DNA from: Nocardioides exalbidus
GTDB lineage: Bacteria > Actinomycetota > Actinomycetes > Propionibacteriales > Nocardioidaceae
DNA: 64,000 nt
NCBI RefSeq assembly: GCF_900105585.1
Contig: NZ_FNRT01000002.1
Coordinates: forward strand, 124,001-188,000
Reading direction: 5' to 3'
In this document: piece after piece, positions 36,501 through 55,857 of the stretch
How positions within the stretch are numbered: the stretch's first letter is position 1
Layout of the letters: each line of letters opens with the position of its first letter
The notes under the pieces: model-generated
The model's database searches: none
What the model saw: the letters and a program-made list of their open reading frames with translations, nothing else
What the model was told of the DNA's origin: nothing
Position numbers and translations under genes: made by a program

Positions 36501-39428
36501 CTGGTCCAGCGGCAGGTTGAGAACCATCGGGTCTGCCCGATCGAGGCCGGGATGAGCAGACGCGGTGAACGAGGCGAGCTGCTGCTCGTATTGCGTGCGC
36601 CGCTCCGCCCAGGACCGGGTCCGGACCTCGTCCAGGTCGCGCAGCCCGACCGCGGGTCCGGTGAGCACGGCGCGCAGGATCTGCAGATCGGCCGGCGATC
36701 CGACGCTTTCCAACGCCGCGCCTAGGAGACCCGGCGCCTGTGTGAGCCGGTGCGCGGCGGTGTCGGCGCGGCGCACGGCTTCCTTGAGCTCCTCGACCGC
36801 GACGCCGGGGCCCTGTACGAAGCCCCACGGGTGGTGCACGCGCGGGACAGCTAGATCTGCGGTTTCGTTGAGCCGACCCAGCAGATGCCTCAAGTTCGAG
36901 GTGACCTCGCCGGCAAGGCGGCTGAGCGCGTCGACCGGGACCGGCAGCGCCGGCGTCTCCTCGCCAACGGCCAGGGCCTGGGTGCGGGCGGAGTAGTAGG
37001 AGAAGCCGGCGGAGTTCTTCTCGTGTAGACGCCGGGCGTACAGGTCGAGGGCACGGGCCGAGGCGTCGAGATCTTGGCGCTGCACGGCGAAGCCTTGCTC
37101 GTCGATGACCGGGGCGAGGTCGAGCGCCTGCAGGATCTGCGCCCGGACTCCGGCCGGCTTGCTGGACTTGTCGTGCAGGTCCAGGCAAAACGGACTGAGT
37201 CCGATCGCGTCAAGGCGGGCGCTCACAACGTCCAAGGCCGCCCGCTTCTCCGCGACGAACAGCACCCTCTTGCCCTCGGCGATCGCCCGCGCGAGCAAGT
37301 TGGTGATGGTTTGCGACTTGCCTGTCCCAGGAGGTCCCTCAAGGACGAACGTCCTTCCGGCAACAGCCGCGGCGATCGCCTCCAGCTGAGATCCGTCCGC
37401 CGGGATGGGGCAGGAGGCATCCAGCTCGTTGAGGTCACCGAGCTCGGCGTCGGCGGCCGGGTCGCGGTAGTCCGTCCCCGGCGTCTCGATCATGTGCCGG
37501 ACGAGCGGGGAGGTGGCGAGCTGCTCCCAGCTGTCGTCGAGGTCCTTCCAGAGCCGGAACTTCGCGAACTGCAGGATTGCAAGGTCTGCGGTCTCGTCGA
37601 CGTGGAAGTCGAGTCCGTTCTCCGCGAGCGCCTTCCGCACGGCGTCGAAGGCCGCGGCAAGGTCGATGCCGTGCTCGTCCTCGACCGGGTTCTCGAGGCC
37701 GGCGATGGACAACTTCTCCTCCTGCCTCAGCTTCTCGATCAGGCAGAAGTTCGGGGTGCTCGCACCAGACTCGTCCAGAACCAGCTGGTAGTGCCCGCCG
37801 CGCCGACCGGGAACCAGGGTCACGGGCACCAAGATGAGCGGCGACTTCACGGCACGCCGCGGACCGCCCTGCTTTGGCGCGACCGACCAGTTCAGCGAGC
37901 CGAGGGCAAGGTAGAGGTTGTTGGCACCGGTCTCTTCAACAATGGTCTTCGCCTTGTATGCCAGGCCTCGGAACCGGCTCAGGTAGGTGTCGCTACTGAC
38001 CGGCGTGAACACCTGGCCCTTGTCGAGGAACTCGTGCAACTGGTCCTGCGGCAGGTGCGCCCCGAACTGGACGCCGCGGGCGCGCTGAATGTGATCGTGC
38101 CCATCGGAGGGCAGCAGCGTGATCGGCTTGCCAGCATTGAGCAGGTCCTCGACGTGCGGCAAGGCGCCGTCCGGTATCGCGAGTGCAACGGTCCCGGACT
38201 CGGTGAAGTTGATGAGCTTGTTGCGCAGAGAGAGGTCGAGGAGGTTGTTCTTCCACCGCTGAACCCGCGGCGGGATTGCTCGTCCCCGGCCGTCCACGCC
38301 GGCTTGCTCCTCAGCCGGGACGGAGCCGGCGACGAAGTGTTGCCCGGAGTGGGTCTCGGGCCGGTACTCAACGACCTCGACCACGCCGTCCGCGCGGTGG
38401 TGTGTGGCCGGCAGCGGCAGGATTCGGCTCCTGCGACAGGCGTAGACGTCGACCACCCCGTCGACCTGGGACATGTCGCCGGAGAGGTAGGTGATCACTG
38501 CCTTGCGGTGGCCATCGTGGTCGAGAGGTGCGCTGTTGGCTCCCCCCGCGACCAGCGTCGTCTCGATGATGCGCAGTGCGCCGATGTCGATCAGATTCTT
38601 CAGCCCGGACGCGTCGACGGTGGCGGGCATTCCGGTGCTCATCGGTGTGAGGTCGTCGATCGTGTGTCGCCACACGCCAAGAAATGCGTGCCCGCGAAGC
38701 AACCAGAGCGTGGTGTTGATGCCGACGGACTCAAGGGCCGCGGCTAGAACGACGGTCGTGTCGAGGCAGGTGCCGGCTCGCCCGACAAGCACCTCTTCCG
38801 GCGTCCGAATCTTCTGTTCCGCGGTCCAGCTGGCAGGTGGGTTGCTGTAGGCGATGTCCCGATTGCGTGCCGCGTCCCAGATCGCCTCGACGATCTCGTC
38901 GACACGCTTTTCGCCAGACTGGTAACCCTGCGTCGCGGAGCTGCCGGTGCGCTGCTCGAGGAGCGTGCGCGCCTCCGCGACGAGCGCGGTGATGGCCGGG
39001 TCGTTCGGCATGACGTAGGAGCCGAGCAGCTCATGGGTGAGCTCGGGCTGGTCCTCGATGAACCGCCACGAGCGTGGGCTGACGACGCTGATCGACCGGC
39101 TCGTTTCACCGATGAGGATGTCATCGGCGCTGACCCTGATCGTCACCTCTCCGGTCCGGTCCTCCTCGATCGCCCACATCGCCGCCGGATCGAGCTTTAC
39201 CGATGGCGTGAAGTCCACGCTCTCTCCGCGGTGGATCAGGATTTCCGCTTCCCACGGCCGGCTCAGCGGTGTGCCGCGGTCAGCCAGGGCGATGGAGACG
39301 GCGATGCATTCAAGATCGTCTGGTAGGCGGGAGAGCTTGATGCTCTTCAAAAAGTCGACCGAGTTGTGCGCCATAGCGAAGCTGACGAACTCCCACATCC
39401 GGACGTCGATGCGGACCTGAACTGCCAC
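33525..39428 (-). CDS. 1967-residue DUF4011 / SF1 helicase / nuclease / DUF3320 protein
   Basis: Domains in order: an N-terminal beta-rich part (1-120); a transglutaminase-like core with Cys221 (GRAGTCLD) and His247 (LLRGHAFLGVW); DUF4011 from about 388 (RWKNNLLDLSLRNKLINF); an SF1 (UPF1-like) helicase with Walker A GPPGTGKS (698-705), Walker B VVFDEASQI (1316-1324), GDSKQMPP (1343-1350), TWHYRSRDEALIAFSN, NVQGDERDVILFS (1526-1538) and LNVAVTRAR (1565-1573); a PD-(D/E)xK-like region resembling MTES_1575/DUF559 (about 1645-1715); and DUF3320 (about 1785-1860). Such giant proteins occur in defence islands and are thought to act on foreign nucleic acid; the biochemical role here is not known. 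Confidence 0.9.
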   Translation of the reverse strand: MAVQVRIDVRMWEFVSFAMAHNSVDFLKSIKLSRLPDDLECIAVSIALADRGTPLSRPWEAEILIHRGESVDFTPSVKLDPAAMWAIEEDRTGEVTIRVSADDILIGETSRSISVVSPRSWRFIEDQPELTHELLGSYVMPNDPAITALVAEARTLLEQRTGSSATQGYQSGEKRVDEIVEAIWDAARNRDIAYSNPPASWTAEQKIRTPEEVLVGRAGTCLDTTVVLAAALESVGINTTLWLLRGHAFLGVWRHTIDDLTPMSTGMPATVDASGLKNLIDIGALRIIETTLVAGGANSAPLDHDGHRKAVITYLSGDMSQVDGVVDVYACRRSRILPLPATHHRADGVVEVVEYRPETHSGQHFVAGSVPAEEQAGVDGRGRAIPPRVQRWKNNLLDLSLRNKLINFTESGTVALAIPDGALPHVEDLLNAGKPITLLPSDGHDHIQRARGVQFGAHLPQDQLHEFLDKGQVFTPVSSDTYLSRFRGLAYKAKTIVEETGANNLYLALGSLNWSVAPKQGGPRRAVKSPLILVPVTLVPGRRGGHYQLVLDESGASTPNFCLIEKLRQEEKLSIAGLENPVEDEHGIDLAAAFDAVRKALAENGLDFHVDETADLAILQFAKFRLWKDLDDSWEQLATSPLVRHMIETPGTDYRDPAADAELGDLNELDASCPIPADGSQLEAIAAAVAGRTFVLEGPPGTGKSQTITNLLARAIAEGKRVLFVAEKRAALDVVSARLDAIGLSPFCLDLHDKSSKPAGVRAQILQALDLAPVIDEQGFAVQRQDLDASARALDLYARRLHEKNSAGFSYYSARTQALAVGEETPALPVPVDALSRLAGEVTSNLRHLLGRLNETADLAVPRVHHPWGFVQGPGVAVEELKEAVRRADTAAHRLTQAPGLLGAALESVGSPADLQILRAVLTGPAVGLRDLDEVRTRSWAERRTQYEQQLASFTASAHPGLDRADPMVLNLPLDQVRVEVATAVNSGFFGRKKRIAAALAPLAPHLSAMPKRKEALPLIDALLETRSHAAQLSPALHILPALRSPDPWNPWDPATQQQLQDHIAWLLSVASAVEPDNVATNPYTAALRSYLEADMTAPQGVVDDIAELVLALDHLHQAAPGANLVGWLAGAPLLRTWSEGRAARESGAEHSMALTRWLNHLQALEPLREAGLHEAADQLRDGIIPAHLAAKAFERGIAETSLVERRGATGLDVFDPGAHNMTVARFGVSSGSVRDHLRTVIPQQIVAARPFSATAERGQVNELRRQLGRQRGGMKVRALLDRYGDLITQLMPCVLVSPDSVARFFPVGSQSFDLVVFDEASQIRVADAVGAIGRAEAVVIVGDSKQMPPTSVAESAVDNEESQELDGIQLVADDESILTEAVSTGLFSRSLTWHYRSRDEALIAFSNEHYYQNQLSSFPTPPPELDAHGRPTAGLSFVRVDGTFLRSGTGKALRTNPEEASQIVAEIRRRFALSPDQPPSIGVVTFNAQQRTLIETMLRDAGDERIVEALDGSNGEGLFVKNLENVQGDERDVILFSIAFSKNEKNVLPLNFGPLGLDRGERRLNVAVTRARQQVIIYCSFDPSDLRAEDTKHLGIKHLKNYLELAQRGTESLASTSSRAVVDRHRDELAVALRTRGLVATTDLGLSEFKIDLALATAAAPDEPVVAVLLDGEGWARRRTVGDRDGLPVTVLSQMMRWQAVERVWLPEWLRDREAVLDRLVDSVRRARAGEPAPVLVPEPTPAPVPAASAAPVAAATGAAAAPAYAAFPPDAGGRIASMPEGLNGASPYRRWTPELAGDVSWLDNLHDPRARTHVRNVMATILETESPILLTRLSKLTANAFGLSRVTPGRIEAISAQVPPTQRDSFGFAWREPADIATFTGFRTATNDEPRVLEEIHPLEMVNAMVAISRSAWGISEDDLYAETLTQFGWKRRTAPAVARLRSTLHMALDDQLLVWDNNGLIREG

Positions 39429-42953: not shown

Positions 42954-43307
42954 ATGTCCACAAACAAGTTGAGCCCAGCGGGTCGACGCGTCACTGACCT
43001 CCCCGAGGTCAAGCGGCGCCGACGCCTGGAGAACCTGCTGTACACCCGCAAGCCAGTGGCGCACCTCGTCGCCGAGTACCGGTCGCACGGACTCGACGAG
43101 CACATCGAGCTCTACTTCCTGCAGTTGGAGGTGGAGCAGGTCCTCGCTGACGAGTTCCCCGACGCCTACGAGGACCACGTCGGTGACTGGGACGACGAGG
43201 AGGTGGGGGCCGAGCACCACCCGATGGTCACGGCCGCGACCTGCAGCCTGTGCCACGCCATCGCGCTGCACAACGGCGGAGACTCGGGCTCACCGCTCGC
43301 GGCCTGA
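42954..43307 (+). CDS. Hypothetical protein with CxxC
   Basis: 117 residues from ATG 42954, behind a strong Shine-Dalgarno AGGAGGG (42944-42950). Basic N-terminus (EVKRRRRLENLLYTRK), acidic middle (DWDDEEVGAEHH), and a C-terminal CSLCHAIALHNGG that may bind a metal. No family recognised. Confidence 0.65.
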   Translation: MSTNKLSPAGRRVTDLPEVKRRRRLENLLYTRKPVAHLVAEYRSHGLDEHIELYFLQLEVEQVLADEFPDAYEDHVGDWDDEEVGAEHHPMVTAATCSLCHAIALHNGGDSGSPLAA

Positions 43308-43513: not shown

Positions 43514-44308
43514 ATGACAGAACACGACGCCACCAACACCTCCGACTCCATCGACGCACCCGAGGAGCTCCACCGCTTCCTGACGGCCTACCGACCCACC
43601 AGCGTGAGCGAGGAGAACTGGGCCCTCATCGCCGACGACGCGGTGCAGCTCGTGCTCCGCGCCGGCGCTCTGACGCGGCTCCGGGTGGAGAAGGACATCC
43701 AGCTGCTCGGCGCGGTGGTCGCGCACCTGATCGAGCGCGGACGACCCGTGACTCTGGACGAGGCCCTCAGCGACGTCACCCTGCTCTCGTTCGACACGTC
43801 CCTGGAGGTGGGTGAGAAGACGAAGGAGAACAAGCGCGGCATCACCCGACGCCTGCAGGCCGTCCACCGCGGCCTGCCCTGGCGCGCGGAGAAGCGGTCA
43901 CCCGAGGCGCGCACGGACAACCTGGTCGCGCACACCGAAGTCGACACCATGCACCGCATCCTCGGTCACGCGCACGCGATGGTCGACGACGCCGAGGGCG
44001 TCGCGTTCATCGCGGCCATCTCTGCAGCCCGGGAGGCTCGGCGCGGTCAGGGTGCCGGCCCCGGTGCGAGCGCACACGACTGGACTTCGGCTCGTGAGTT
44101 CGCGGGCCGGTACGGGTGGAACATGACCCAGCGCCTGCTCAAGGCCTGCGTCACGCACGAGACCCTGAACACCGATCAACCCCTCGCCATCGTGATCCGT
44201 GACTACGGGCTGTCGCGCCGCGACCTAGACCTCGGGTTCACCCGCGTGCGCGACCTGCCCGACGTCCCCGTTCCGTCGCACCACGACCTTCTTCGAGGCC
44301 CGGCCTGA
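43514..44308 (+). CDS. Hypothetical protein of the recombinase/transposase-like cluster
   Basis: 264 residues from ATG 43514. Mostly helical; TSAREFAGRYGWNMTQRLLKACV near residue 195 looks like a helical DNA-binding element. No known domain recognised. Same strand and spacing (130 nt) as the next two genes, so probably part of the same cluster. Confidence 0.6.
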   Translation: MTEHDATNTSDSIDAPEELHRFLTAYRPTSVSEENWALIADDAVQLVLRAGALTRLRVEKDIQLLGAVVAHLIERGRPVTLDEALSDVTLLSFDTSLEVGEKTKENKRGITRRLQAVHRGLPWRAEKRSPEARTDNLVAHTEVDTMHRILGHAHAMVDDAEGVAFIAAISAAREARRGQGAGPGASAHDWTSAREFAGRYGWNMTQRLLKACVTHETLNTDQPLAIVIRDYGLSRRDLDLGFTRVRDLPDVPVPSHHDLLRGPA

Positions 44309-44348
44309 GGCTGCGGAGTCGCCCTGCCAGACCCATTCGGCCGCTGGC

Positions 44349-44363
44349 GTGCAGCGATTGCAC
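44349..44363. promoter_or_regulatory. GTGCA-N5-TGCAC palindrome, second copy
   Basis: GTGCAGCGATTGCAC; its reverse complement matches the 42746-42760 site at 14 of 15 positions. It lies 76 bp before the recombinase-like gene. Confidence 0.6.
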
Positions 44364-44438
44364 ACCGGCGTCCCGGCGGCACGGTGCACGTCCAGATCGC
44401 CCGCCAATGACGGGTGACTGGATGAGAGGAACGGCCTG

Positions 44439-45464
44439 ATGGCCAAGAATCCCAAGCGCACGAAGCGCCCGAGCAAGGCCGCAGTCGCCCGGCTGCGGGA
44501 AGAGGTCGAGACCCGGCCGAAGAACGACGAGCTGCCCGCCGAGGTCCTCGCGGTCATCGAGGCCTACGTGCCCGCCCGCGTCAGCGACACTACGATGGAG
44601 AAGGTCCGCCCGTTCCTAGTCGACGCCATCACCGCGTCGAGCCTGCACGGCAAGGAGAGCGTTCGCAAGCACTGCAACCACATCACGCAGCTGGCCTGCT
44701 TCGCCCTGAAGCGTGGGCTGCCGCTCGAGGTCACCGCCCTCCTCACCACCGCCTTCATCGACGAGTACGTCCGCGTTGAGATGGCGGAGGAGACCGAGCA
44801 CAACCGGGCCGAGCGCCGGCGTCGACTGCTGGCGCTGGCGCGGAGCGCCAACCCCGGGCCGGGCGTTCCGCCGAAGCTCACCCCGATCGGGCACAGCTCG
44901 GTCAAGCCCTGCTACTCCCCCGCCGAGCTCGCCGTCATCACGCGGGCGGCACGGGTCCAGCCCACCGCAGCCCGCCAGCGCGACCTGGCCATCGTCGTCG
45001 CACTCAGCGGCGGCGCGGGTCTCGACAGCGTCGACATGCGCGACCTGCTCACCGACAACATCGAGGACCTCGGCGAGGCGGGCATCCGCATCCACGTGCA
45101 GCGGCCCCGCCCGCGCGTCGTGGTGCTGCGCCGGCCGTTCGAGTCCCTGCTGCGCGACGCCCTCAAGGGCAAGCCGGCCGGCAAGCTTCTGATCGGCCGC
45201 AAGCAGGACCGCCGCAACACCGCCGCCCGCGCCACCGAGCGCGCCGCGCTGCACAACGTCCCCCACATCGAGCCCGCCCGCCTGCGCGCGACCTGGATCG
45301 CGGACCTGATGACCGACTCCATCCCCCTCGCGGTCATCCTGCAGGCGGCCGGGCTGAAGTCCGCCCGTACCCTCGCCGAGCTGCAGCCCCACCTGGGGCC
45401 CTGGCTGGCGCACAAGGGCCTCACCGAGGCACCCAGCGCCGGGATGCGCGGTGAGCAGCGATGA
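44439..45464 (+). CDS. Degenerate tyrosine-recombinase-like protein
   Basis: 341 residues; AGAGGA 8 nt before the ATG. The C-terminal half has the tyrosine recombinase layout: RQRDLAIVVALSGGAGLDSVDMRDLL in place of the Arg-I box, ARLRATWIADLM in place of HxLRHTxAT (second Arg kept), then GLKSARTLAELQ in place of GHSSxxTTxxY. The first catalytic Arg, the His and the nucleophilic Tyr are not seen. So it is probably inactive as a recombinase but may bind DNA. Ends in a 4-nt overlap with the transposase-like gene. Confidence 0.6.
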   Translation: MAKNPKRTKRPSKAAVARLREEVETRPKNDELPAEVLAVIEAYVPARVSDTTMEKVRPFLVDAITASSLHGKESVRKHCNHITQLACFALKRGLPLEVTALLTTAFIDEYVRVEMAEETEHNRAERRRRLLALARSANPGPGVPPKLTPIGHSSVKPCYSPAELAVITRAARVQPTAARQRDLAIVVALSGGAGLDSVDMRDLLTDNIEDLGEAGIRIHVQRPRPRVVVLRRPFESLLRDALKGKPAGKLLIGRKQDRRNTAARATERAALHNVPHIEPARLRATWIADLMTDSIPLAVILQAAGLKSARTLAELQPHLGPWLAHKGLTEAPSAGMRGEQR

Positions 45465-47299
45465 GCGCAAAGCGCCTCACCCGGCCGATGGTCGAGCGCA
45501 CCCTGTGGATCGTCGACGAGAGCAACGTAATGGACGTCCTCGCCCCGCCCACGCCCGCAGGGCAGCGCGGCCGCAAGGGCCGGATCAGGGACAACACCCG
45601 GCTCTGGGTGATCGGCGTGATCCTGTGCACCCGGATGGGCCACGAGACCACGGTCAAGGGCGTCTATGACGTCCTCACCCAGGCGCTGCCCCGGGAGATG
45701 CAGTGGGAGCTCGGCGTCCTGCGCCCCCTCACCACCACCAAGGAGACCACGCGTGCCGCCCACGACCCCGAGGCGGCGCGCCTGACGAAGAACGGCAAGC
45801 CGCGCAAGGAGATCTGGACCGACTTGGGGTACGAGCGCCTGGGCTACGACGACCTCGTCAACGCCACCAACAAGCTGCGCGACCGCCTCGACTACGGGCA
45901 CGGATCCGCGCCGGACCTCCCTCCAGGAGAGCGGGTTCGTCGGCGGAGTCTGGTCGAGGACGCCGTGGACCGCCTCATCAAGGTCTCCGTCATCCCCCGC
46001 ACGTGCAGCACCGTGACCATCGATGGTACCGGCCAGTGGTCGTGGAACATCGGGCCCAAGATGGAGCAGCGCAACGCCCAGAAGCGCCTCGCGGCCGGCA
46101 CCGCTCACGCCGTCAGCGAGGACGTCGAGACCGCCCTGCAGGTCACCAGCATCGTCGCCGACGACGACACGACACCGGCACCCAAGGGCGCCGCCACGAC
46201 GCGGCTGCGCCACTGCCTGGACGCCGCGTGGGGCTACAAGACCGGCAAGGGCGGCCAAAAGGAGGTCGGCTACGGCTTCCACCAGCACACCGTCGTCCGG
46301 ACTGCCGACCCGAACTCCACCGGTCGGCCGGAGCCGCTGCTCGTCGAGGGACTGGTCGTCGTGCCCGCCAACGAGGACGTCGTGGACGCCTCGCTGCGGC
46401 TCCTGGACCGCATCCAGCTCCGCTCCAAGATCACCCGGCTCGCCGGGGACCTGCTCTACACCAACCTCAAGGCCGACCGGTGGGCAGTGCCCCTGGCCCA
46501 GCGCGGCATCGAGCAGATCCTCGCCATGCGCGAGGACGGAGGCGGGTGCGTCGACATCAACGGCGCCGTCATGCAGTACGGCTGGATGCACTGCCCCGCC
46601 GCGCCGATGGACCAGCGCCCCCTGCCGGCGACCTTCGCCCGGGACGAGGACGAGGAGCACTACGACACCGTCGAGGAGTTCAAGGCCAACTGGTCCTTCG
46701 ACCGCAAGGAGTCCGGACTGGGACGCAACCCCTCCTCGAAGTGGATCTGCCCGGCCATGGCCGGCAGGGGCGGTTGCTGGGCGCGAGGCACGGACAACGT
46801 CACCGTCGCCCGGGAGGCCGGCCTGCCCATCATCACTCCGCCCGAGGACTGGCAGACGCGCCCCTGCTGCACCAACAAGACCATGGACTTCACTCCGGAC
46901 CCGAAGAACCCGCACCACCAGCGCAAGCTCATGCAGCGCGAGTACGTCGGCACCCGCCGCTGGCGGCGCGCCTTCAACCTCAGCTCCAGCGTGGAGGGCG
47001 CGTTCGGGATCCTGAAGAACCCCAGCAGGCAGCGCATGCGCCGCGGCCAGAACCGGCTGCCCGGGCTCGCCATGGCCAACCTCATCAACGGCCTCAAGGC
47101 GTCGGTGTTCAACGAGGAGCAGCTGCGCAGCTGGCACGAGGAGACCGGTCTCGGTCCGGCCGAGCACCCGCTCCTCCAGGCCGACCCGCACGACTGGGGG
47201 TTCACCGACCCGACGAAGGAACAGGCCAAGGAGATCGACGCCCGCCACCTGCTGGTGGCTCGGACGGAGAACAGCACGGTCGCCGAAGAGGCCGCCTGA
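45461..47299 (+). CDS. DDE-transposase-like protein
   Basis: 612 residues. Candidate catalytic acids: D188 (STVTIDGTGQW), D330 (LAGDLLYTN) and E512 (SSSVEGAFGILKN). WGYKTGKGG near residue 257 and the ending RRAFNLSSSVEGAFGILKN, RMRRGQNRLPGLAMANLINGL resemble IS4/DDE_Tnp_1-type transposases. An insertion between the second Asp and the Glu (about 360-475) has several Cys and may bind zinc. No terminal inverted repeats or target duplications were found at the ends. Coupled to the recombinase-like gene. Confidence 0.65.
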   Translation: MSAKRLTRPMVERTLWIVDESNVMDVLAPPTPAGQRGRKGRIRDNTRLWVIGVILCTRMGHETTVKGVYDVLTQALPREMQWELGVLRPLTTTKETTRAAHDPEAARLTKNGKPRKEIWTDLGYERLGYDDLVNATNKLRDRLDYGHGSAPDLPPGERVRRRSLVEDAVDRLIKVSVIPRTCSTVTIDGTGQWSWNIGPKMEQRNAQKRLAAGTAHAVSEDVETALQVTSIVADDDTTPAPKGAATTRLRHCLDAAWGYKTGKGGQKEVGYGFHQHTVVRTADPNSTGRPEPLLVEGLVVVPANEDVVDASLRLLDRIQLRSKITRLAGDLLYTNLKADRWAVPLAQRGIEQILAMREDGGGCVDINGAVMQYGWMHCPAAPMDQRPLPATFARDEDEEHYDTVEEFKANWSFDRKESGLGRNPSSKWICPAMAGRGGCWARGTDNVTVAREAGLPIITPPEDWQTRPCCTNKTMDFTPDPKNPHHQRKLMQREYVGTRRWRRAFNLSSSVEGAFGILKNPSRQRMRRGQNRLPGLAMANLINGLKASVFNEEQLRSWHEETGLGPAEHPLLQADPHDWGFTDPTKEQAKEIDARHLLVARTENSTVAEEAA

Positions 47300-47386
47300 G
47301 CCGACACCGCTTCGTCAGTGCACGGCAGTGCGCTTGATCCTTGACAACTCAACAGCGAGACGTGGCTGCGGCGCCCGGCCGCGGTC

Positions 47387-50300
47387 TCACGCCACGGTGA
47401 CGTCCGGGAGGGCGTGCGTTCGGACGTCGTCGAGGACGGCGACGATGTCGTCGACCTGGGCGTCGGTGAACAGCGAGTCCGGCCCGTTGGGTGCGTGGTC
47501 GGTGAACGGGGACTCGTAGAGCCTGGCGACCTCCACCACGCCGTTCGCGGTCAGCTCCTCGACCACCATCTGCACGAACCGGAGCTGGTTGGTCGAGAAC
47601 GAGGTGTCGGAGAGGTAGCGGTCGAATGCGGCCGTGGCGGCTTCACGGTCCAGTCCCACGAGGGACCGGACAAAGAGGCCCAGGCCGTGGGCTTCCTCGC
47701 GGGCCTTGGCGATGTCGGTCTCGGTACCGGCACCGGACTCCAGCAGCATCGTCTCCAAGGAGGTGAGGTCACCGGCGGTGAGCTGGAGGTTACGGCGCAG
47801 GCGCTGCAGCGCGAGGTGGTCCTCGTGGTCAAGCAGGTAGGCCCGGGCTTTGGCGCGGAACCGTTCCCAGTTGGTGCCGGGCAGGACTCCCGGGAGGTCG
47901 ACGATGCTGGAGTCGCCGAGCTCGTCCTCGAAGTCGGAGTAGACGATGGCGCGCTTGGTCGAGTCGACGAACCGCACCAGGCCTCGGACCCGTCGGCGAG
48001 CCAGCTCAAGCATCGGCAGGGTCGCGTCGACCCACCACTCGTCACCGGCCAGCTGGTCCAGCAGTTGCACCTGAGCCTTGACCGACGGGATGGTCGTCTG
48101 GCCGAGCAGCGCCGAGCTGATGTCTTGGACCTGCTTGCGCAGCCGTTCGTAGGTGAGTGCGTCGCTCTCCAGTCGGGCGAGTTGCAGACGCAGCAGGATC
48201 AGGTCGAAGCGTTTGGCGTTCTCGTCCTCGTCGCGATGCGCGGAGGGCAACCCGGCCAGATGCCGGGCGATGTCACCGGCCTTGTCCGTGTCCAGATGCT
48301 TCCACGAGCGCCACTCGGCGTAGGTCTCGACCCACTGCCGAGCGGGGCGCACCAGGAAGTTGTGGACGTTCATGCCCGCCACGAGCTCGTGGAGCGACCA
48401 GGCGACGTCGACCCTAAGCCCGCGCTCGGACGTCTCACCTTCACCCACCTCCGGATCCTCGGTCGTCTCACCAGAGGTGTGGTCAAGGGCTGCGACCAGA
48501 CCCAGGCGGGCCTCGAAGAGGCGCTCGGCCAGCGATTTCTGCACACTGCCACCGGTCTCGGGGAGGTCCTGGCTGAAGTACTCGAGGTTGCCGCAGACGT
48601 CGAAGACATAGAAGTTCTTCTTGTCCTCACTGGGGCCGTAGAGATTGGCGCACAGGCGGGTGCCGCGGCCGATCATCTGCCAGAACTTGGACTTGGACCG
48701 GACGGCCTTGAAGAAGACGAGGTTGACGACCTCAGGGACGTCGATGCCGGTGTCGAGCATGTCGACAGAGATCGCGATGTGCGGTGCCTTGTCCTTGATC
48801 GAGAAGTCGTCGATCAGCGACTGTGCGTAGGTGACGGAGTGGGTGATCACGCGGGCGAAGTCGCCGGCGTAGTGGGGGTAGGCGAGGTTGAAGCGCTGCT
48901 CGATGAACTCGGCGTGCTTCTGGTTCTTGGCGAAGATGATGGTCTTGCCCAGGCGGTCGCCGCCGGCGACCTTGTGACCGTCCTTCATCAGGGTTGCCAG
49001 GACCTTGTCGACGGTGTCGGCGTTGAACAGGAACCGGTTCAGCTCCTCGGCGCTGATGGCGTCGGGGATCTCGCCGTCCTCGCTCCACTCGTAGGAGTCC
49101 CAGTCGTCCTTCTCCTCCTCGGAGAGTTCGTCGTAACGGATCCCCTGCCGCAGGAACTTGGTGGACATGGACACCCCCACCGGGGGGACGAGGTAGCCCT
49201 CGGCCACGGCCTCGTCGAGGCTGTATGCGTCGGTGGGAACACCGTCCTCCAGGTTGAACAGGCCGTAGGTGTTGCGGTCGACCTCGTCCTTGGGGGTCGC
49301 GGTCAGACCCACCAGCAGCGAGTCGAACCAGGAGAAGATCGCGCCGTACTTCTGGTAGACCGACCGGTGGGCCTCATCGATCACGACGAGGTCGAAGTAG
49401 CCGGGTCCGAACAGGCGTCGGCCGCTGTCGATGTCGTTGATGAGGTTGAGCATCGTCGGGTAGGTCGAGACGTACACGCGGCCGTCGTTGTTCTTCTCGG
49501 TGACCAGGTTGACGGTCGTGACGTTGGGGAGGTGGGTCTTGAACGCATTCGCTGCCTGGCGGACCAAGGCGGTGCGGTCGGCGAGGAACAGCACACGTTT
49601 CACCCAGCCGGCTCGCATGAGTTGGTCAACCAGCGCGATCGTCACGCGCGTCTTTCCCGACCCGGTGGCCATCACGAGCAGGGCGTCGCGCTGCTTGGCG
49701 GTGAAGGCGTCGCCGACGGCGCGGATGGCGCGTTGCTGGTAGTGCCGCCCGACGATCTCCTTGGTGATCGTCGCGGTGGCGAGTGGGAGCCGACCGGTGC
49801 GGCGTCCCACCATGAGCTCCAGCTCGGCGTCGGTGAAGAAGCCCTCGACCTTGCGGGGTGGGTAGCCGGCGGCGTCGTCCCAGAGCCAGGTCTGGTAGCC
49901 GTTCGTGTAGAGAATCACCGGGCGTCGGCCGGTCATCTGCTCGAGGCAGTCGGCGTAGAGCTTGGCCTGCTGCTGGCCGACGGCCGGCTCAACCGTGGTG
50001 CGCTTCGCCTCCACCACGGCCAGCGGCAGACCGTCTGCACCCCAGAGCACGTAGTCGACGTAGCCGGTGTTCTTCTCGTTGGGCATGCCGGTGACCTCGA
50101 ACTCACGGTCCCGGACCTCTGTGAGTAGCCACCCCGCCTCGCGGAGCAGCTGGTCGATGATCAGCTCGCGGGTCTTGGCCTCGGAGTAGTCCCGGGTGTC
50201 CGGCAACGTGTTGGCAGCCTGTGCCGCCTTGATCTGCGCCCGGAGCTTCTCGATCTCGGCGTCCTTGGCCGCGGCCAGGTCGTCGCGCTCAGCTAGCGCC

Positions 50301-50803
50301 TTCGTGTGCGCCTCGTCTTGGGCTTGGAACTTCTCCGCGAGCTTGACGACGTCGTCGCGACTCAGCGGGGCGTTCTTTCCGGCCACCGACGGGTCGAACA
50401 CCGCACCGGTGGGCACAGAGGCCGGATTCGTCGAGTAGCGGAAGGCAGTCCACACCACGACGTGGTGGAGCTCCCGAAGGACGTCGACGGCTGCTTTCGC
50501 CGGAATCGGCTGAATGTCGTGGACGGCCTTGTTGCCGAGACTGCGGATCAGGTTGAGCTTCTGCCCGATCCCCACACCGACCCGGTTGCGGAACTCTGCC
50601 TGGTTGATCCGCGCGGCCAGATCGTTCTTGTACGGCAACGGCAGGCGGTCCACGTCGTAGATCAGGCCGACAAGCTGCTCGGCAGCCCGACGCGCGTAGA
50701 TGCACGCGGTGCGCGGGTCCGAGGCCAGGTAGCCCTCTGCCTGCGCGCAGTCCGCGTGCGTCTGCGGCCAGTCCGCCTTGATGAACTCGAAGTTGCTGCT
50801 CAT
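47387..50803 (-). CDS. hsdR: Type I restriction enzyme R subunit
   Basis: 1138 residues from ATG 50803. N-terminal DUF4145-like helical part (1-120), coiled-coil (150-200), PD-(D/E)xK nuclease with D250 and E265-A-K267 (PLAVVEAKRT), then SF2 translocase: Walker A MATGSGKT (378-385), DEAH (476-479), LTATPKD, and motif VI in FWQMIGRGTRLC. C-terminal helical region. Cleaves unmodified DNA after ATP-driven translocation, in complex with HsdM and HsdS. It overlaps the upstream membrane-protein gene by 4 nt. Confidence 0.95.
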   Translation of the reverse strand: MSSNFEFIKADWPQTHADCAQAEGYLASDPRTACIYARRAAEQLVGLIYDVDRLPLPYKNDLAARINQAEFRNRVGVGIGQKLNLIRSLGNKAVHDIQPIPAKAAVDVLRELHHVVVWTAFRYSTNPASVPTGAVFDPSVAGKNAPLSRDDVVKLAEKFQAQDEAHTKALAERDDLAAAKDAEIEKLRAQIKAAQAANTLPDTRDYSEAKTRELIIDQLLREAGWLLTEVRDREFEVTGMPNEKNTGYVDYVLWGADGLPLAVVEAKRTTVEPAVGQQQAKLYADCLEQMTGRRPVILYTNGYQTWLWDDAAGYPPRKVEGFFTDAELELMVGRRTGRLPLATATITKEIVGRHYQQRAIRAVGDAFTAKQRDALLVMATGSGKTRVTIALVDQLMRAGWVKRVLFLADRTALVRQAANAFKTHLPNVTTVNLVTEKNNDGRVYVSTYPTMLNLINDIDSGRRLFGPGYFDLVVIDEAHRSVYQKYGAIFSWFDSLLVGLTATPKDEVDRNTYGLFNLEDGVPTDAYSLDEAVAEGYLVPPVGVSMSTKFLRQGIRYDELSEEEKDDWDSYEWSEDGEIPDAISAEELNRFLFNADTVDKVLATLMKDGHKVAGGDRLGKTIIFAKNQKHAEFIEQRFNLAYPHYAGDFARVITHSVTYAQSLIDDFSIKDKAPHIAISVDMLDTGIDVPEVVNLVFFKAVRSKSKFWQMIGRGTRLCANLYGPSEDKKNFYVFDVCGNLEYFSQDLPETGGSVQKSLAERLFEARLGLVAALDHTSGETTEDPEVGEGETSERGLRVDVAWSLHELVAGMNVHNFLVRPARQWVETYAEWRSWKHLDTDKAGDIARHLAGLPSAHRDEDENAKRFDLILLRLQLARLESDALTYERLRKQVQDISSALLGQTTIPSVKAQVQLLDQLAGDEWWVDATLPMLELARRRVRGLVRFVDSTKRAIVYSDFEDELGDSSIVDLPGVLPGTNWERFRAKARAYLLDHEDHLALQRLRRNLQLTAGDLTSLETMLLESGAGTETDIAKAREEAHGLGLFVRSLVGLDREAATAAFDRYLSDTSFSTNQLRFVQMVVEELTANGVVEVARLYESPFTDHAPNGPDSLFTDAQVDDIVAVLDDVRTHALPDVTVA

Positions 50804-51783: not shown

Positions 51784-52707
51784 TCACTCGAAGAAGTCCT
51801 CGTCCATCTCGACGATCTGGACTGTCCTCTTCACCTGTACACCGACGCCGTAGCGGATCATCAGCCTGGTCAACTTCTCGCCGTCGATGAGCACGATGCG
51901 CGTCGGCACCTGGTCGGCGTAGGCCTGTGCCTCACCACTGAACCGACTGGTCGTGATGAAGACCCCTTGGTTGGCCTGATTACCGGCCAAGGCACCGACG
52001 AAGGCCTGAATCGCCGGCCGACCGATGGCGTTGCCCTCGGCGTAGCGCTTCGCCTGGACGTAGATCCTGCTCAACCCGAGCGCATCCTGATCGACGATCC
52101 CGTCGATGCCGCCGTCGCTGGACAGCTGGGTGCGGGTCGCTGACCCCTCCGCGCCGCCGTAGCCCATGGCGATCAGCAGGTCGAGCACGGCCTGCTCGAA
52201 GAAGACCGGCTCCTGCGCGAGAATGCGGGTCAGCAACTGGTCGGCGACATCAGCGTTGATACGAGCAACCCCGGACGCAATCTGCTCCTCGGGGTCGAGC
52301 CTGGATGACTCTTCCACCGCAGCGGGCGCGGACACCTGCACGGGCGAGGGAAACGCCTTGAAGGTGTGCGGGGCGTTCTCATCGCCGGACAGCGCGCGCA
52401 GGTGCTTCTCGGTGATGCCGTTCGGGTGCTCCGAGAGGAGCTGCCGACCGACATCAGTGATCCGGTAGCGGCCCCGACTCGGCCGCTCGGCCGCACCCGA
52501 CCGGGCCAGATAGGACAACGCCCAGTTGCCGCGGTTCACCCACTGCTCCTGCCCCGAGGGAATCAGGATCTGCCGCTGCTCGTCCGTCACCCCGAGGAGG
52601 TCGGCTGCCCCCTCCACGATCGGGCGTGTGCGATGCACCTCCCCATCAGACAGCACCCGTAGGCATGGCGCCATGTACTGATCCCAGGTCGGCACTGGAG
52701 ACGTCAC
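51784..52707 (-). CDS. mrr: Mrr-type restriction endonuclease
   Basis: 307 residues from GTG 52707, overlapping the hsdS stop by 4 nt. N-terminal Mrr-N winged helix (QEQWVNRGNWALSYLARSGAAERPSRGRYRITDVG), then the Mrr nuclease: ALDLLIAMGYG, DGGIDGIVDQDALGLSRIYVQAKRY supplies the catalytic D and QxK. Mrr cleaves methylated DNA in the family. Inside a Type I operon it could guard against foreign modified DNA, or serve the host system in some other way. Confidence 0.9.
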   Translation of the reverse strand: MTSPVPTWDQYMAPCLRVLSDGEVHRTRPIVEGAADLLGVTDEQRQILIPSGQEQWVNRGNWALSYLARSGAAERPSRGRYRITDVGRQLLSEHPNGITEKHLRALSGDENAPHTFKAFPSPVQVSAPAAVEESSRLDPEEQIASGVARINADVADQLLTRILAQEPVFFEQAVLDLLIAMGYGGAEGSATRTQLSSDGGIDGIVDQDALGLSRIYVQAKRYAEGNAIGRPAIQAFVGALAGNQANQGVFITTSRFSGEAQAYADQVPTRIVLIDGEKLTRLMIRYGVGVQVKRTVQIVEMDEDFFE

Positions 52708-53866
52708 AACTCACCCCGAAACGCGCTAGCTTGTAGCGCCTCGAACAATTCTTCAACTTCTCGCGAGCACGGGTCAAATACCGCCCGCAACGCGGCGGCT
52801 TTCCGCACTCGCTTCATGAATCGCCGCTGAACCTCAATCGGCGGCAGGATCAGTGAGAGTTTTTCGATCCTAAACAATGCCAACTTTCCAATCGTCACCT
52901 GGCCGACGTGGCTGCGGATCTGCGACTGGAGACCAGCGGACCGCAAAGCGGCGGCCAGCCACTCGGCCTCGTAAAGGTCCTTCTGATGTGGGACCAACTT
53001 GGCGGCATTCTCCGTGAGGTTCGCACCAACGAGCTCGTCCGGTACTGGTGCTACTAGCCCGATTGAACCGGCAATGGAGATAACAACGTCGCCTGACGCA
53101 ACCGTGTAGCGACTGATCGTTGCCTGAACGTCGGACGTGAGATACCGGAGATCTGCGGTGGAGATGGCGCCGTTCTTCAGGTCCACGACCCGAACGTACG
53201 GATAAGGCGTCGGGGCGGCTGCGTAATCGGCTCCCTTCGGTAGCCTTTTACCCCCCTTCACCGATGCGATGTCCTTCACGGTGACCGTCGGCCACTCAGA
53301 GTCGGGCTCGCCGAACATTTCGTGAAAGATCGACTGGGCGAGACCGTCGAGGTAGGCGAGGGCTTCGCGACGCTTTGCGCGGAGGGCATCGGCCCGGTCC
53401 AGGATCGCGGCGATACGGCGCTGCTCGTCGAGGGGGGTATCTCGACATCAAGCTCGAGCAAGCTCTCGATCGGGAAGTTGTCCGCTGTAGTCGCTCGGAC
53501 CCAGGTCAGTACGCGCGGCTGAAGGGACTTGACCAGTCTGGCAAGGAACGCAGGATGGACTTCAGCCGAAGGTGTCAACGCCTTCATGTCTTGGTTCACG
53601 GTGACCGGTGCGGTCGTCAGAGCGACGGGGAGCGTGTGCTTCAGCACTCCCGAGCGCACAACAACCAGGACAGATCCGGAAGCGATCAGTTTCGCGGGAG
53701 AATTGTCCACCCCGGCTTGCGTCAGCCTGACTGAAGAGTCGGACACAATCGCCCGCTTCATGTCCTTTGGAGTCACCCAGGGGATGGAACCGCCGTAGAA
53801 CTCAGCCGTTGACCTTCGAGGGGTACCCCCACCTCGCACAGCCACCACGTCGCGCAGTTTTGTCAC
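52704..53866 (-). pseudogene. hsdS: Type I specificity subunit hsdS, frameshifted
   Basis: Starts at GTG 53866 (4-nt overlap with hsdM). TRD1 (TKLRDVVAVRGGGTPRRSTAEFY ... LLELDVEIPP) then breaks; the next-frame continuation LDEQRRIAAILDRADALRAKRREALAYLDGL and EMFGEPDSEW leads to a full second TRD (residues 1-204 of the 52704-53318 frame). The break is at G6 (53432-53437); adding one G gives a single protein of 387 residues. As sequenced, only TRD1 is made in frame. It determines the DNA sequence methylated by HsdM and recognised by HsdR. See the findings for error versus phase variation. Confidence 0.9.
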
Positions 53867-55323
53867 GAGAGCATCGCCCTCAACTCGCCAAGCTCCTGTT
53901 GGATCTGTTCCTCGAGCTTCTCCAAGTCCGCGATGATGTCGAGCGGAGCACGGTGCTCGGTCTCGTCGTGGACGATCTCCCTGTAACGGTTCAGGGATAG
54001 GTCGTAGCCCTGCTCCTCGATGTCGGCCTTGGGCACACAGAAACTCTGCTCAGTGCGGGCCCGGTGCTGCTCGTCAGAATCGCGATTCGCCCAGCGCGAC
54101 AGCACGTCTGGGAGATCGTTTGCCTGGATCGGGCTGCGCTTGTCGTCAAGACTGAAGCCGTCAGCCTGAACGTCGTAGAACCAGACATGGTCGGTGCCGC
54201 CAGAGTTAGTCTTGGTGAAGAAGAGGATGGCGGTAGAGACCCCCGCGTACGGCCTGAACACCCCCGAGGGGAGCTTGACCACTGCGTCAAGTTTCTGGTC
54301 CTCAACAAGGATCTTGCGGAGGTCCTTGTGTGCCGTGGATGACCCGAAGAGCACGCCGTCCGGGACGATGACCGCCGCCCGACCTCCCGGCTTGAGCAGC
54401 CGGAGGAAGAGGGCGAGAAACAGGAGTTCCGTCTTCTTGGTCTTGACGACCCGCTGCAGGTCCTTGGAGGTGGACTCGTAGTCGAGGCTGCCGGCGAAGG
54501 GCGGGTTCGCCAGGATCAGCGAGTACGTCCCTTCCTCACCGGACGCGCCCTCGGAGAGGGAGTCGCGGTAGCGGATGTCAGGCTGCTCGACTCCGTGGAG
54601 CAGCATGTTCATGCTGCCGATGCGGAGCATGGTGGAGTCGAAGTCGTAGCCGTGGAACATGCTCTGGTGGAAGTGCTGACGCTGGGCGGCGTCGGTCATC
54701 ACGGACGGGTGGTGCTCGCGGACGTACTGAGCCGCCGAAACCAGGAACCCCGACGTGCCCGAGGCCGGGTCGCAGATCTCGTCGGTGGGTTGTGGCGCGG
54801 TCATCGCGACCATGAGGTCGATGACGTGGCGCGGCGTCCGGAACTGACCGTTGGTGCCAGCGGTCGCGATCTTGCTGAGCATGTACTCGTACAGATCACC
54901 GCTGGTGTCGCGGTCGTTCATCGGGATCTCGTCGAGCAGATCGACGACCTTGGACAGCAGCGCCGGTGTCGGGATCGTGAAGCGGGCGTCCTTCATGTGG
55001 GTGGAGTAGGTCGATCCGTCACCGCCGAGTGCGCGCAGGAACGGGAAGACGCCTTCGCCCACGACCTGGTGCATCACGCCGGGCTCGAGGTCCTTGAACT
55101 TCGACCACCGGAGGTCGGCCTGCCCGGGCTGGAAGAGCGGGTTCTCGACGGGCTGTCCCGTGCGGTTGGCCTTCTTCTCGGCCAGCGTCTGGAGGTCATC
55201 GAGGCGACGGACGAACAGGAGGTAGGTGATCTGCTCGATCACCTCGAGGGGGTTCGCGATGCCGCCTGACCAGAACGCGTTCCAGATGGTGTCGATCTTG
55301 CTCTTTAGCTCCCCGGTGATCAC
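53863..55323 (-). CDS. hsdM: Type I DNA methyltransferase M subunit
   Basis: 486 residues from ATG 55323. N-terminal helical domain (LKSKIDTIWNAFWSGG), SAM-binding motif I DPASGTSGFLV, and catalytic motif IV NPPF (ANPPFAGSLDY), so an N6-adenine methylase. First gene of a leftward hsdM-hsdS-mrr-membrane-hsdR operon in which all but one junction overlap by 4 nt (mrr to the membrane gene has a 51-nt gap). Confidence 0.95.
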   Translation of the reverse strand: MITGELKSKIDTIWNAFWSGGIANPLEVIEQITYLLFVRRLDDLQTLAEKKANRTGQPVENPLFQPGQADLRWSKFKDLEPGVMHQVVGEGVFPFLRALGGDGSTYSTHMKDARFTIPTPALLSKVVDLLDEIPMNDRDTSGDLYEYMLSKIATAGTNGQFRTPRHVIDLMVAMTAPQPTDEICDPASGTSGFLVSAAQYVREHHPSVMTDAAQRQHFHQSMFHGYDFDSTMLRIGSMNMLLHGVEQPDIRYRDSLSEGASGEEGTYSLILANPPFAGSLDYESTSKDLQRVVKTKKTELLFLALFLRLLKPGGRAAVIVPDGVLFGSSTAHKDLRKILVEDQKLDAVVKLPSGVFRPYAGVSTAILFFTKTNSGGTDHVWFYDVQADGFSLDDKRSPIQANDLPDVLSRWANRDSDEQHRARTEQSFCVPKADIEEQGYDLSLNRYREIVHDETEHRAPLDIIADLEKLEEQIQQELGELRAMLS

Positions 55324-55365
55324 ACCCGAACTCTAAGCGGCACCTCCGACGCCCGCAGACAGACC

Positions 55366-55403
55366 ACGAGAGCCGCCCCGACGGGTGTCGAGACGGCTCT
55401 CGT
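55366..55403 (-). terminator. Hairpin between ssrA and hsdM
   Basis: 10-bp stem 55366-55375 with 55394-55403, loop 18 nt. About 90 nt beyond the ssrA 3' end and 40 nt before hsdM. Could terminate ssrA or insulate the hsd operon. The rest of 55324-55489 also holds two copies of ATTCTGCGAAGA at 55448 and 55470. Confidence 0.5.
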
Positions 55404-55489
55404 TCAAGAGGGCTGGCTCCCGGCGGTGTGACCCACCGGGACCGGTAATTCTGCGAAGAGTCCACGCTTATTCTGCGAAGACCCCTGAG

Positions 55490-55857
55490 TGGAGCTGCGG
55501 GGAATCGAACCCCGGTCCTCGAGCGTCGAACCAGGTCTTCTCCGGGTGCAGTCTGTGCTGTCGCTTTTCTCGGCCCCGGCGCTCGCACAGACACGTCGCC
55601 GACAGGCTCAGTCAGGATTGAGTCCCGGTCACCCCTCCTGACAGAGAGTGACCAGCAAGTCTCCTAGATGAGGCCTGGGTCCGGGACGGAGACGGATGCC
55701 CGGTCAGACCCTTCGATCACTGCTCAGGCAGCGAGAGCGAAGTCGTTGCGCTTGGAGTTGGCAACTATAGGTTTCCAGCGATCGTTAACGAGATGACGCT
55801 GGCTTCTCGACCCGCTTCTCCTGGAACTAACGTCCCAAGTCGAAACCGATCAGCCCC
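55490..55857 (-). ncRNA. ssrA: tmRNA
   Basis: Minus strand. The 5' end begins GGGGCTGATCGGTTTCGAC and the 3' end closes with the T-arm GGGGTTCGATTCCCC and CAGCTCC-A; GGGGCTG pairs with CAGCTCC as the acceptor stem. CCA is not encoded. The tag frame at 55762-55727 reads ANSKRNDFALAA followed by TGA at 55726-55724, a normal proteolysis tag. tmRNA rescues stalled ribosomes. The 3' end abuts the accessory island. Confidence 0.97.

What the first reader, a model, noticed from the sequence alone, without database searches (positions are those of the whole stretch)
43514..47299. Degenerate tyrosine recombinase translationally coupled to a DDE-transposase-like protein
Two DNA-rearranging enzyme folds in one overlapping pair is unusual; the first seems to have lost its catalytic Arg, His and Tyr, while the second keeps D188/D330/E512. 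No terminal repeats are found. It could be a domesticated element, a targeting factor plus transposase, or a new mobile element family.
Basis: partly seen in the sequence, partly recalled or inferred. Interest (0 to 1): 0.6.

Follow-up and report, generated by a model that had tools for sequence, protein, structure and literature searches.

The report
Transposon that homes to tRNA-like genes
The gene pair belongs to a 25-kilobase jumping DNA element that inserts exactly at the end of a tmRNA or tRNA gene; it seems to combine a cutting enzyme of one kind with the dead remains of a different DNA-rearranging enzyme as the likely guide, and here it carries anti-virus defence genes.

Summary
Comparison with relatives' empty ssrA sites puts the element at 30313-55485 (25,173 bp), with terminal inverted repeats (GGGGTSTTCG) and a 5-bp target duplication (TGAGT), its right end abutting the tmRNA gene's 3' end. 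Related elements of three clades sit at tmRNA and tRNA 3' ends; an exact 5-bp duplication was found in 17 of 24 loci examined. Two 6.5-kb elements 99.7% identical have different duplications, each the same at its own two ends, so the duplicated bases come from the target, as for a DDE transposase. C keeps D188/D330/E512 across clades. B has a tyrosine-recombinase fold but has lost four catalytic residues in every row aligned; A is its partner, and an A-like stretch seems fused to B elsewhere. Best reading: a non-Tn7 DDE transposon homing to tRNA/tmRNA 3' ends, with dead recombinase A/B as probable target selector. Nearest precedent: TnsF of Tn6022. The target-selector role is inferred, not shown.

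The parts
30308..30312 (.). Left copy of the 5-bp target-site duplication (TGAGT)
   Evidence: Identical to 55486-55490; part of a flank that is contiguous with ssrA in relatives without the element
30313..30400 (+). Left end (LE): terminal inverted repeat GGGGTGTTCG, conserved GCAGGTCAG block, and an inward copy of the end motif in inverted orientation (TTTCGCGAAG)
   Evidence: Compared with the left ends of relatives
33525..39428 (-). Cargo: large helicase/nuclease (DUF4011, AAA_11/12, MTES_1575)
   Evidence: Pfam
42954..43307 (+). Small ORF left of gene A, with similar DNA in several relatives; function unknown
   Evidence: DNA similarity in L023, L025, L030 and L031; no family
43514..44308 (+). 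Gene A, 264 aa; N-terminal domain related to that of B; an A-like stretch precedes B in one frame in other clades; proposed half of the target selector
   Evidence: A against B: hhalign probability 83.7, E 8e-6 over 104 columns. A against the N-terminal extensions of clade-2/3 B: probability 87.0 and 86.6 as small alignments, only 13.8 and 21.7 as single sequences
44439..45464 (+). Gene B, 341 aa; tyrosine-recombinase fold without catalytic residues (first Arg to Asp, His lost, His/Trp to Leu/Phe, Tyr to Leu; second Arg kept)
45461..47299 (+). Gene C, 612 aa; DDE transposase (D188, D330, E512); start overlaps the stop of B by 4 nt
47387..50803 (-). Cargo: type I restriction subunit HsdR
   Evidence: start set by similarity of relatives from about residue 85 of the longer ORF
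51784..52707 (-). Cargo: Mrr-type restriction enzyme
52704..53866 (-). Cargo: HsdS in two overlapping ORFs (52704-53318, 53276-53866)
53863..55323 (-). Cargo: type I methyltransferase HsdM
55356..55415 (-). Hairpin inside the right end that resembles the native ssrA terminator of relatives
   Evidence: 91.7% to L071, 96% to L079 and L076; hits in 11 of 20 flanks (77-96%), one of them (L081) itself an element end
55446..55485 (-). Right end (RE): GGGGTCTTCGCAGAAT with a second TCTTCGCAGAAT 22 bp further in
   Evidence: 11-mer repeat reached by 0 of 500 shuffles
55486..55490 (.). Right copy of the 5-bp target-site duplication (TGAGT)
55489..55857 (-). Target: ssrA (tmRNA) gene, 3' end facing the element
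   Evidence: ARAGORN; Rfam

Best explanation
The window holds a 25,173-bp transposon of an undescribed family. SHOWN by comparison: its two ends (inverted terminal repeats starting G[AG]GG in most elements), a 5-bp duplication, insertion in one orientation directly beyond the 3' end of tmRNA or tRNA genes, presence and absence in relatives, and the conserved genes A, B and C. INFERRED: C, a DDE transposase related to the DDE_Tnp_1 / IS1182-like superfamily, binds the end repeats (two copies 22-23 bp apart at the right end, a differently arranged pair at the left end) and does all cutting and joining, with a 5-bp stagger. INFERRED with less certainty: B, a tyrosine recombinase that has lost its active site, and its partner A recognise the T-arm/acceptor end of the RNA gene, the classic attachment site of tRNA-targeting integrases, and bring C to it, so that a dead recombinase acts as target selector. 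The duplicated bases and a carried copy of the ssrA terminator keep the RNA gene intact after insertion. Cargo here is restriction and helicase/nuclease defence. Whether it moves by cut-and-paste or by copying is not known.
For: Ends and target duplication: exact 5-bp duplication at both ends in 17 of 24 loci examined, over three clades and several genera. The flank left of the window's element is contiguous with ssrA in relatives without it: the joined flanks match L065 at 92.8% and L064 at 87.5% across the junction. Target-derived duplication: two elements of 6.5 kb, 99.73% identical, at the same tRNA-Ser have CTGGC and TTGGC, each the same at both of its own ends. End anatomy: right-end repeats 22-23 bp apart, reached by 0 of 500 shuffles in 10 of 12 elements. 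Catalysis: D/D/E invariant in 8 aligned sequences and in 9 of 12 rows over three clades, the other 3 rows being fragments or wrong frames; two clade-2 C proteins pass the Pfam cut-off. B is dead in 10 of 10 rows but has the fold. No other Phage_integrase hit lies inside 15 of 16 elements checked and no serine recombinase inside 12 of 12. Non-autonomous copies: elements of 991, 1,020 and 5,283 bp keep both ends and the duplication in genomes where no C was found. Precedent: TnsF, an inactivated tyrosine recombinase, selects the comM target for Tn6022 (PMC10293859, passages read).
Against: No experiment. AlphaFold2 failed on C and B's model is middling (pLDDT 64.6; Foldseek TM-scores 0.2-0.3). 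Seven of 24 loci lack a clean pair of ends: G172 has a left end with a 15/16 repeat match but CGAGT instead of TTGGT; G703 shares CGGGA only with a 1-nt shift; none was found in G226, G142 and G708; contigs end too soon in G241 and G705. When candidate left ends were ranked without the duplication, the true-looking one was in the best four in 9 of 11 but only in 2 of 8. G078 has a canonical integrase inside its span. A 5-bp spacer flanked by inverted arms also resembles a recombinase core site. Nothing ties A or B directly to target recognition; they could be regulators. The A-like nature of the extension in clades 2-3 is weak on single sequences, and one row (L097) was not significant. C in G137 appears frameshifted near its end.
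Confidence: 0.66

Rival explanations
1. DDE transposon as above, but C itself chooses the target, and A/B are DNA-binding regulators (repressor or excision control), like the dead recombinase MrpR of phage SPbeta.
For: MrpR is a tyrosine-recombinase-fold repressor that has lost recombinase function (PMC10516654, passages); its chains 8a0a and YopR 8bj6 appear in the fold list for B, though only at Z 5.3-5.5, where chance matches also lie. A palindrome lies upstream of A (43410-43452), a possible operator. IS1202-family elements find dif sites without encoding Tn7-like targeting proteins (PMC10132070, abstract).
Against: The palindrome is seen only in the window and its nearest relative L023 among five loci looked at. 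B stays next to C across clades, with overlapping start and stop in 7 of 9 clade-1 loci scored, and the target class (tRNA/tmRNA 3' ends) is the classic site of tyrosine integrases, which speaks for a targeting role.
Confidence: 0.24
2. An integrative element moved by tyrosine recombination, in which B or A/B is still active by an unusual mechanism, the 5-7 bp being the overlap region and the inverted repeats its core-binding arms.
For: Position at tRNA/tmRNA 3' ends is typical for tyrosine integrases; inverted arms around a short spacer look like a core site; B has the fold.
Against: B lacks the first Arg, His, His/Trp and Tyr in 10 of 10 rows. The 5 bp vary between loci and are the same at both ends in 17 of 24 loci, also for two 99.7% identical elements; strand exchange between unlike overlaps should leave unlike junctions (established knowledge of the reaction, not tested). 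By eye, the target has no inverted arms. C with an intact DDE triad would be unexplained. The one clean mismatch, G172, would fit this rival.
Confidence: 0.08
3. A domesticated or fixed chromosomal gene set, or an accessory of the neighbouring type I restriction system.
For: In the window, L025 and L031 the module lies next to the same hsdR.
Against: In L023 and L030 no hsdR relative was found near the module, and in L026 the hsd genes lie on the other side of it. Distribution is sporadic, 19 of 294 genomes; targets differ (tmRNA, tRNA-Ser, tRNA-Gly, tRNA-Leu).
Confidence: 0.02

Closest known systems
TnsF of Tn6022 (Tn7-like transposons, comM target)
   Same: A DDE-type transposon that uses a protein with an inactivated tyrosine-recombinase domain as target selector; target-site duplications; one specific target (PMC10293859, passages)
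   Different: [quoted passage not shown] Here no TniQ or TniB hit lies inside the elements of 13 genomes, and no such gene was found among the window's cargo proteins scanned. The transposase matches DDE_Tnp_1, not TnsB, and the target is an RNA gene's 3' end
Tn7 / Tn7-like elements homing downstream of glmS or at tRNA genes
   Same: Single-site homing in one orientation beyond the end of an essential gene, 5-bp duplication, unlike left and right ends with repeated transposase sites about 22 bp apart (Tn7 end anatomy recalled)
   Different: No TniQ or TniB found; ends begin G[AG]GG rather than TGT (Tn7 ends: PMC10132070 abstract)
IS1182 / IS4-like insertion sequences (Pfam DDE_Tnp_1, DDE_Tnp_1_6)
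   Same: C shares the DDE profile and the 'VE..FG.LK' region
   Different: Those are mostly short single-gene elements of low target specificity (recalled); here large cargo, extra proteins and a fixed target class
tRNA- or tmRNA-targeting genomic islands with tyrosine integrase
   Same: Same attachment place, cargo of defence genes
   Different: No active integrase in 15 of 16 elements checked; 5-bp target-derived duplication instead of an element-borne att core
IS1202 family (ISAjo2), pdif/dif hunters
   Same: DDE elements with 5-bp duplications at sites tied to tyrosine recombinases (PMC10132070 abstract)
   Different: They are 1.5 kb, may use host XerC, encode no further Tn7-type targeting proteins; transposase modelled on TnsB
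MrpR / YopR of phage SPbeta
   Same: Dead tyrosine recombinase kept as a DNA-binding protein (PMC10516654, passages)
   Different: A phage repressor, not part of a transposon

Membership tests
DDE transposon (any) | Terminal inverted repeats | tested here: met
   12 to 17 of the first 17 end bases match between left and right end in 12 of 12 elements compared
DDE transposon (any) | Target-site duplication of fixed length derived from the target | tested here: met
   Exactly 5 bp in 17 of 24 loci; near-identical elements with different duplications
DDE transposon (any) | Transposase with conserved DDE triad and RNase H fold | tested here: inconclusive
   Triad conserved and profile match above cut-off in clade 2; the fold itself was not resolved by AlphaFold2
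Tn7-like transposons | TniQ/TnsD target selector | tested here: not met
   No PF06527 hit at E <= 0.01 inside the elements of 13 genomes searched
Tn7-like transposons | AAA+ regulator TnsC/TniB | tested here: not met
   No PF05621 hit at E <= 0.01 inside the elements of 13 genomes searched; none among the window's cargo proteins scanned
Active tyrosine-recombinase integrative elements | Catalytic R...H-x-x-R...H/W...Y | tested here: not met
   Only the second Arg is kept in B, 10 of 10 rows (motif positions assigned by eye against a recalled consensus; the Lys was not examined)
Active tyrosine-recombinase integrative elements | Canonical integrase gene inside the element | tested here: not met
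   None in 15 of 16 elements checked, apart from weak hits to B itself in G078 and to A-B in G048; one canonical hit inside G078
Serine-recombinase integrative elements | Resolvase/serine integrase inside the element | tested here: not met
   No PF00239 hit inside 12 of 12 elements checked
TnsF-type target selectors | Inactivated tyrosine-recombinase domain | tested here: met
TnsF-type target selectors | Binding to the target and requirement for transposition | not testable with these tools
   Needs gel shift and transposition assays
IS1182-like insertion sequences | Transposase above the curated cut-off of PF13751 or PF01609 | tested here: inconclusive
   The window's C below both; two clade-2 proteins above PF01609, one clade-3 protein above PF13751

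The most novel reading that the evidence does not exclude
A whole family of actinobacterial transposons, independent of Tn7, has turned a tRNA-targeting tyrosine integrase into a catalytically dead two-part guide (A+B) that delivers an IS1182-like DDE transposase to the 3' ends of tmRNA and tRNA genes, so that integrase-like homing and DDE chemistry are joined in one machine. It would be a second, separate origin of recombinase-derived target selection, carrying defence islands of up to tens of kilobases.
Probability: 0.55. Interest if true: 0.87.

Novelty: new variant of a known kind. Interest (0 to 1): 0.8.

Why it matters
Islands at tRNA and tmRNA 3' ends are commonly assigned to tyrosine integrases; here is a family at the same sites that moves, on this evidence, by DDE chemistry with a target-derived 5-bp duplication. 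That makes a general question testable: how a transposase acquires a homing protein. With three genes (two reading frames in other clades), short ends, natural 1-kb non-autonomous copies and a conserved target, it is a compact candidate system for site-specific insertion of large cargo without an AAA+ regulator of the TniB kind or TniQ. It also offers a way by which defence genes (type I restriction, Mrr, helicase/nuclease) could spread among actinobacteria such as Nocardioides, Blastococcus and Cellulomonas, where the module was found.

Tried and rejected
Rejected: element limited to 43514-47299 (no convincing end repeats there). Rejected: TTGACAACTCAACAG (47341), which I first took for an element end; it is a boxA-like sequence that also lies just upstream of tmRNA in other genomes. 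Rejected: left boundary at 28466, where synteny with G117 stops; the flank next to ssrA maps to 30194-30307. Searches for C in viral contigs, plasmids and phages gave no match; a clade-2 C hit one Streptomyces plasmid at 26%. The class-wide search found 8 of 394 genomes, the own one included, most of them partial matches. PF13751 in 16 relatives: none, so no ordinary IS1182 set was at hand for a profile-profile test. A loose right-end pattern over 215 genomes was too noisy to use (195 matched; counts of the reversed control pattern were of the same order in the rows listed), except that it pointed to right ends beside ssrA in G029 and G170. AlphaFold2 on C was unusable, so I did no fold search with it. 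Rfam on the insertion sites of L026 and L031 found no RNA gene above its cut-off; by eye L031's site looks like an altered ssrA 3' fragment. Paper searches (seen as listings) found no description of this family in the held open-access library; most subscription papers are not in it. Read further: PMC10293859 (passages and outline), PMC5704250 (passages), PMC10516654 (passages), PMC10132070 (abstract and outline).

Rows dropped: C of L025 and L030 (frameshifts), L032 and L033 (fragments) were left out of A1; B of L027, L030, L032 and L033 out of A2; A of L024, L025, L030, L032 and L033 out of A3. In the clade alignment rows L098, L099 and L103 of C were fragments or wrong frames and are not counted for the triad. 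BLAST hits of 80 bp or less and of 150 bp or less were not printed.


Full report
What is in the stretch. Gene A (43514-44308, 264 aa), B (44439-45464, 341 aa) and C (45461-47299, 612 aa) lie in a row on the + strand; C starts inside the last codons of B, with a 4-nt overlap. A has no family hit. B gives a weak Phage_integrase match and C a weak DDE_Tnp_1 match. The genome has one copy of C. The host is a Nocardioides: the same-genus genome G196 and the record of Nocardioides sp. Soil805 have the match at the same coordinates.

Relatives. C has a match at E <= 1e-3 in 19 of 294 genomes of the family, some of them short, and 11 loci came from the genome collection, among them Nocardioides, Blastococcus and Cellulomonas. 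Of these 11, eight have A, B and C; L024's contig begins before A; L032 and L033 show only a piece of C. Three clades can be told apart: the window's (55-93% identical in C), a second (about 30-34%) and a third (about 26-31%). In the clade-2 and clade-3 loci B is the end of a longer frame of 577-777 aa (farthest start taken), except G226 (354 aa). Its N-terminal part resembles A in profile comparison (probability 87.0 over 222 columns for clade 2, 86.6 over 102 columns for clade 3), but weakly for single sequences (13.8 and 21.7). If right, A and B work as one unit.

The clue. In 8 loci including the window the module points at a tmRNA gene, in L027 at tRNA-Gly, in clade 3 at tRNA-Ser or tRNA-Leu. 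Beyond the RNA gene's 3' end lies a pair of direct repeats, TCTTCGCAGAAT in the window, 22 bp apart; L032 has an altered pair some 160 bp from ssrA. A search for this clade-1 type of pair in 20 relatives whose ssrA flank was fetched found it beside ssrA in one (L081 = G197); a second hit, in L072, lay elsewhere. It is thus absent beside ssrA in 19 of 20.

The ends. The flank next to ssrA in a relative without the module (G117) matches window 30194-30307 at 76%, E 2e-17, and the flank of G261 is identical over 29 of 29 bases. The element therefore runs from 30313 to 55485, 25,173 bp. It starts GGGGTGTTCG and, read inwards from the other side, GGGGTCTTCG. The five bases TGAGT stand outside both ends. 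Joined flanks of the window match the uninterrupted site of G261 (92.8%) and G117 (87.5%) across the junction. Of nine elements tested so, six had at least one spanning match among 47 ssrA sequences from 28 relatives (in G078 and G197 reaching only 25-40 bp into the left flank); G029, G120 and G290 had none.

How general. A right end was taken beside the RNA gene, and the same five bases followed by a matching repeat were sought to the left. Exact pairs: G000, G196, G137, G029, G120, G078, G221, G290, G197, G245, G154, G048, G702, G704, G706, G707 and G170: 17 of 24 loci examined. Not found or not clean: G226 and G142 (none), G708 (none), G172 (left end 15 of 16 but another 5-mer), G703 (shared CGGGA with a 1-nt shift), G241 and G705 (contig ends). 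For the eleven the mean number of hits for a random 5-mer was 0.06-0.59 at the 7-of-10 threshold, so single weak hits mean little; the accepted left ends score 8-10 of 10 (clade 3: 9-12 of 12), and the clade-1 ones go on into a shared GGTCAG block in most cases. Ranked without using the duplication, the candidate preceded by it stands among the best four in 9 of 11 and in 2 of 8 (G702 and G704). G029 and G078 each show a second left end with the same five bases, which suggests tandem copies. In G290 a clade-1 right end stands 11 bp left of a clade-2 left end, two families stacked at one ssrA.

Which chemistry. A tyrosine recombinase would carry the overlap bases with it. The elements of G245 and G154 (aligned stretch 6.67 kb, 99.73% identical) sit at the same tRNA-Ser, yet have CTGGC and TTGGC, each at both of its own ends. 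The bases thus come from the target, as with DDE transposases. B has lost the first Arg (to Asp), the His (to Ala, Ser or Met), the His/Trp (to Leu or Phe) and the Tyr (to Leu) in 10 of 10 rows (positions read by eye against a recalled consensus). C keeps its Asp, Asp and Glu in all complete rows and passes the Pfam cut-off in two clade-2 members. No other Phage_integrase hit lies inside 15 of 16 elements checked (G078 is the exception; weak hits to B or A-B themselves not counted), no serine recombinase inside 12 of 12, and no TniQ or TniB inside 13 of 13. C is thus the best candidate for catalysis.

End anatomy. The right end has two direct copies of its motif 22-23 bp apart (0 of 500 shuffles reach this in 10 of 12 elements, 7 in G245, 208 in G048). 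The left end has one copy, then in clade 1 a (G)CAGGTCAG-like block and an inverted copy about 36 bp in. Unlike ends would explain why the right end faces the RNA gene in the loci found. Inside the right end lies a hairpin 92-96% identical to the native ssrA terminator of some relatives (hits in 11 of 20 flanks, 77-96%, one of them itself an element): the element brings a terminator for the gene it displaces.

Non-autonomous copies. G197 (991 bp), G029 (1,020 bp) and G170 (5,283 bp) have both ends and the 5-bp duplication, and no C was found in these genomes (that G170 and G197 were's sample follows from their handle numbers). The two small ones hold one gene resembling a solute-binding protein (my reading; not searched). 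The content of the G170 element was not examined.

Role of A and B. B's predicted structure is middling (pLDDT 64.6), but its best matches are Cre, XerH and XerA, and VIA-align lists Cre at Z 8-9, with MrpR, YopR and SroF at Z 5.3-5.5 among unrelated rows. A shares the N-terminal domain of B. Dead tyrosine recombinases are known as a target selector (TnsF in Tn6022; PMC10293859, passages) and as a repressor (MrpR; PMC10516654, passages). Target selector is the better guess here, because the target class is that of tyrosine integrases, but this is inference. By eye the targets share the T-arm GTTCGA (or close to it) and the acceptor end; even the odd sites of L026 and L031 keep part of this.

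Cargo in the window: DUF4011 helicase/nuclease, a protein with TPR repeats (below cut-off), type I restriction (HsdR, split HsdS, HsdM) and Mrr. In relatives the cargo differs, and in L026 the hsd genes sit on the other side of the module.

Verdict. An unreported transposon family as far as nine paper searches in an open-access library can tell. It works like a homing Tn7-type transposon but fails the Tn7 membership tests. The general idea of a recombinase-derived selector is known from TnsF, so I rate it a new variant of a known kind.

Noticed in passing
window 47341-47355: A boxA-like sequence TTGAnAACTCAACAG lies shortly after the stop of C in the window, L023, L024, L025, L031, L032 and G078 (L005), not in L030; in L026-L029 a like sequence lies on the other strand upstream of A. 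Similar sequences stand just upstream of tmRNA in other loci. Role unknown.
   Followed up: partly
window 43410-43452: A 21-nt-arm palindrome (86% complementary) upstream of gene A, shared with L023 only among five loci looked at; a possible operator for A/B.
   Followed up: partly
window 52704-53866: HsdS is split in two overlapping ORFs, each matching one specificity domain; a possible half-subunit arrangement or a frameshift.
   Followed up: no
G197 and G029 beside ssrA (L081, L144): Mini-elements of about 1 kb with complete ends carry a single solute-binding-protein-like gene; why this gene rides alone is open.
   Followed up: partly
L097 (G290), about 2.1 kb in reversed orientation: Right end of one clade 11 bp from the left end of another at one ssrA: stacked insertions.
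   Followed up: partly
window 28466-30194: An alcohol-dehydrogenase-like gene (my reading) present beside ssrA in G117 is replaced in the window by an unrelated 538-aa ORF; a separate event outside the element.
   Followed up: no
window 42954-43307: Small ORF with a CxxC motif near its C-terminus, similar DNA left of gene A in several loci but 6 kb away in L031; may be a fourth component.
   Followed up: no
G172, L152/L162: A clade-2 left end (15 of 16 match) is preceded by CGAGT while the right end has TTGGT: perhaps the product of recombination between stacked elements.
   Followed up: no
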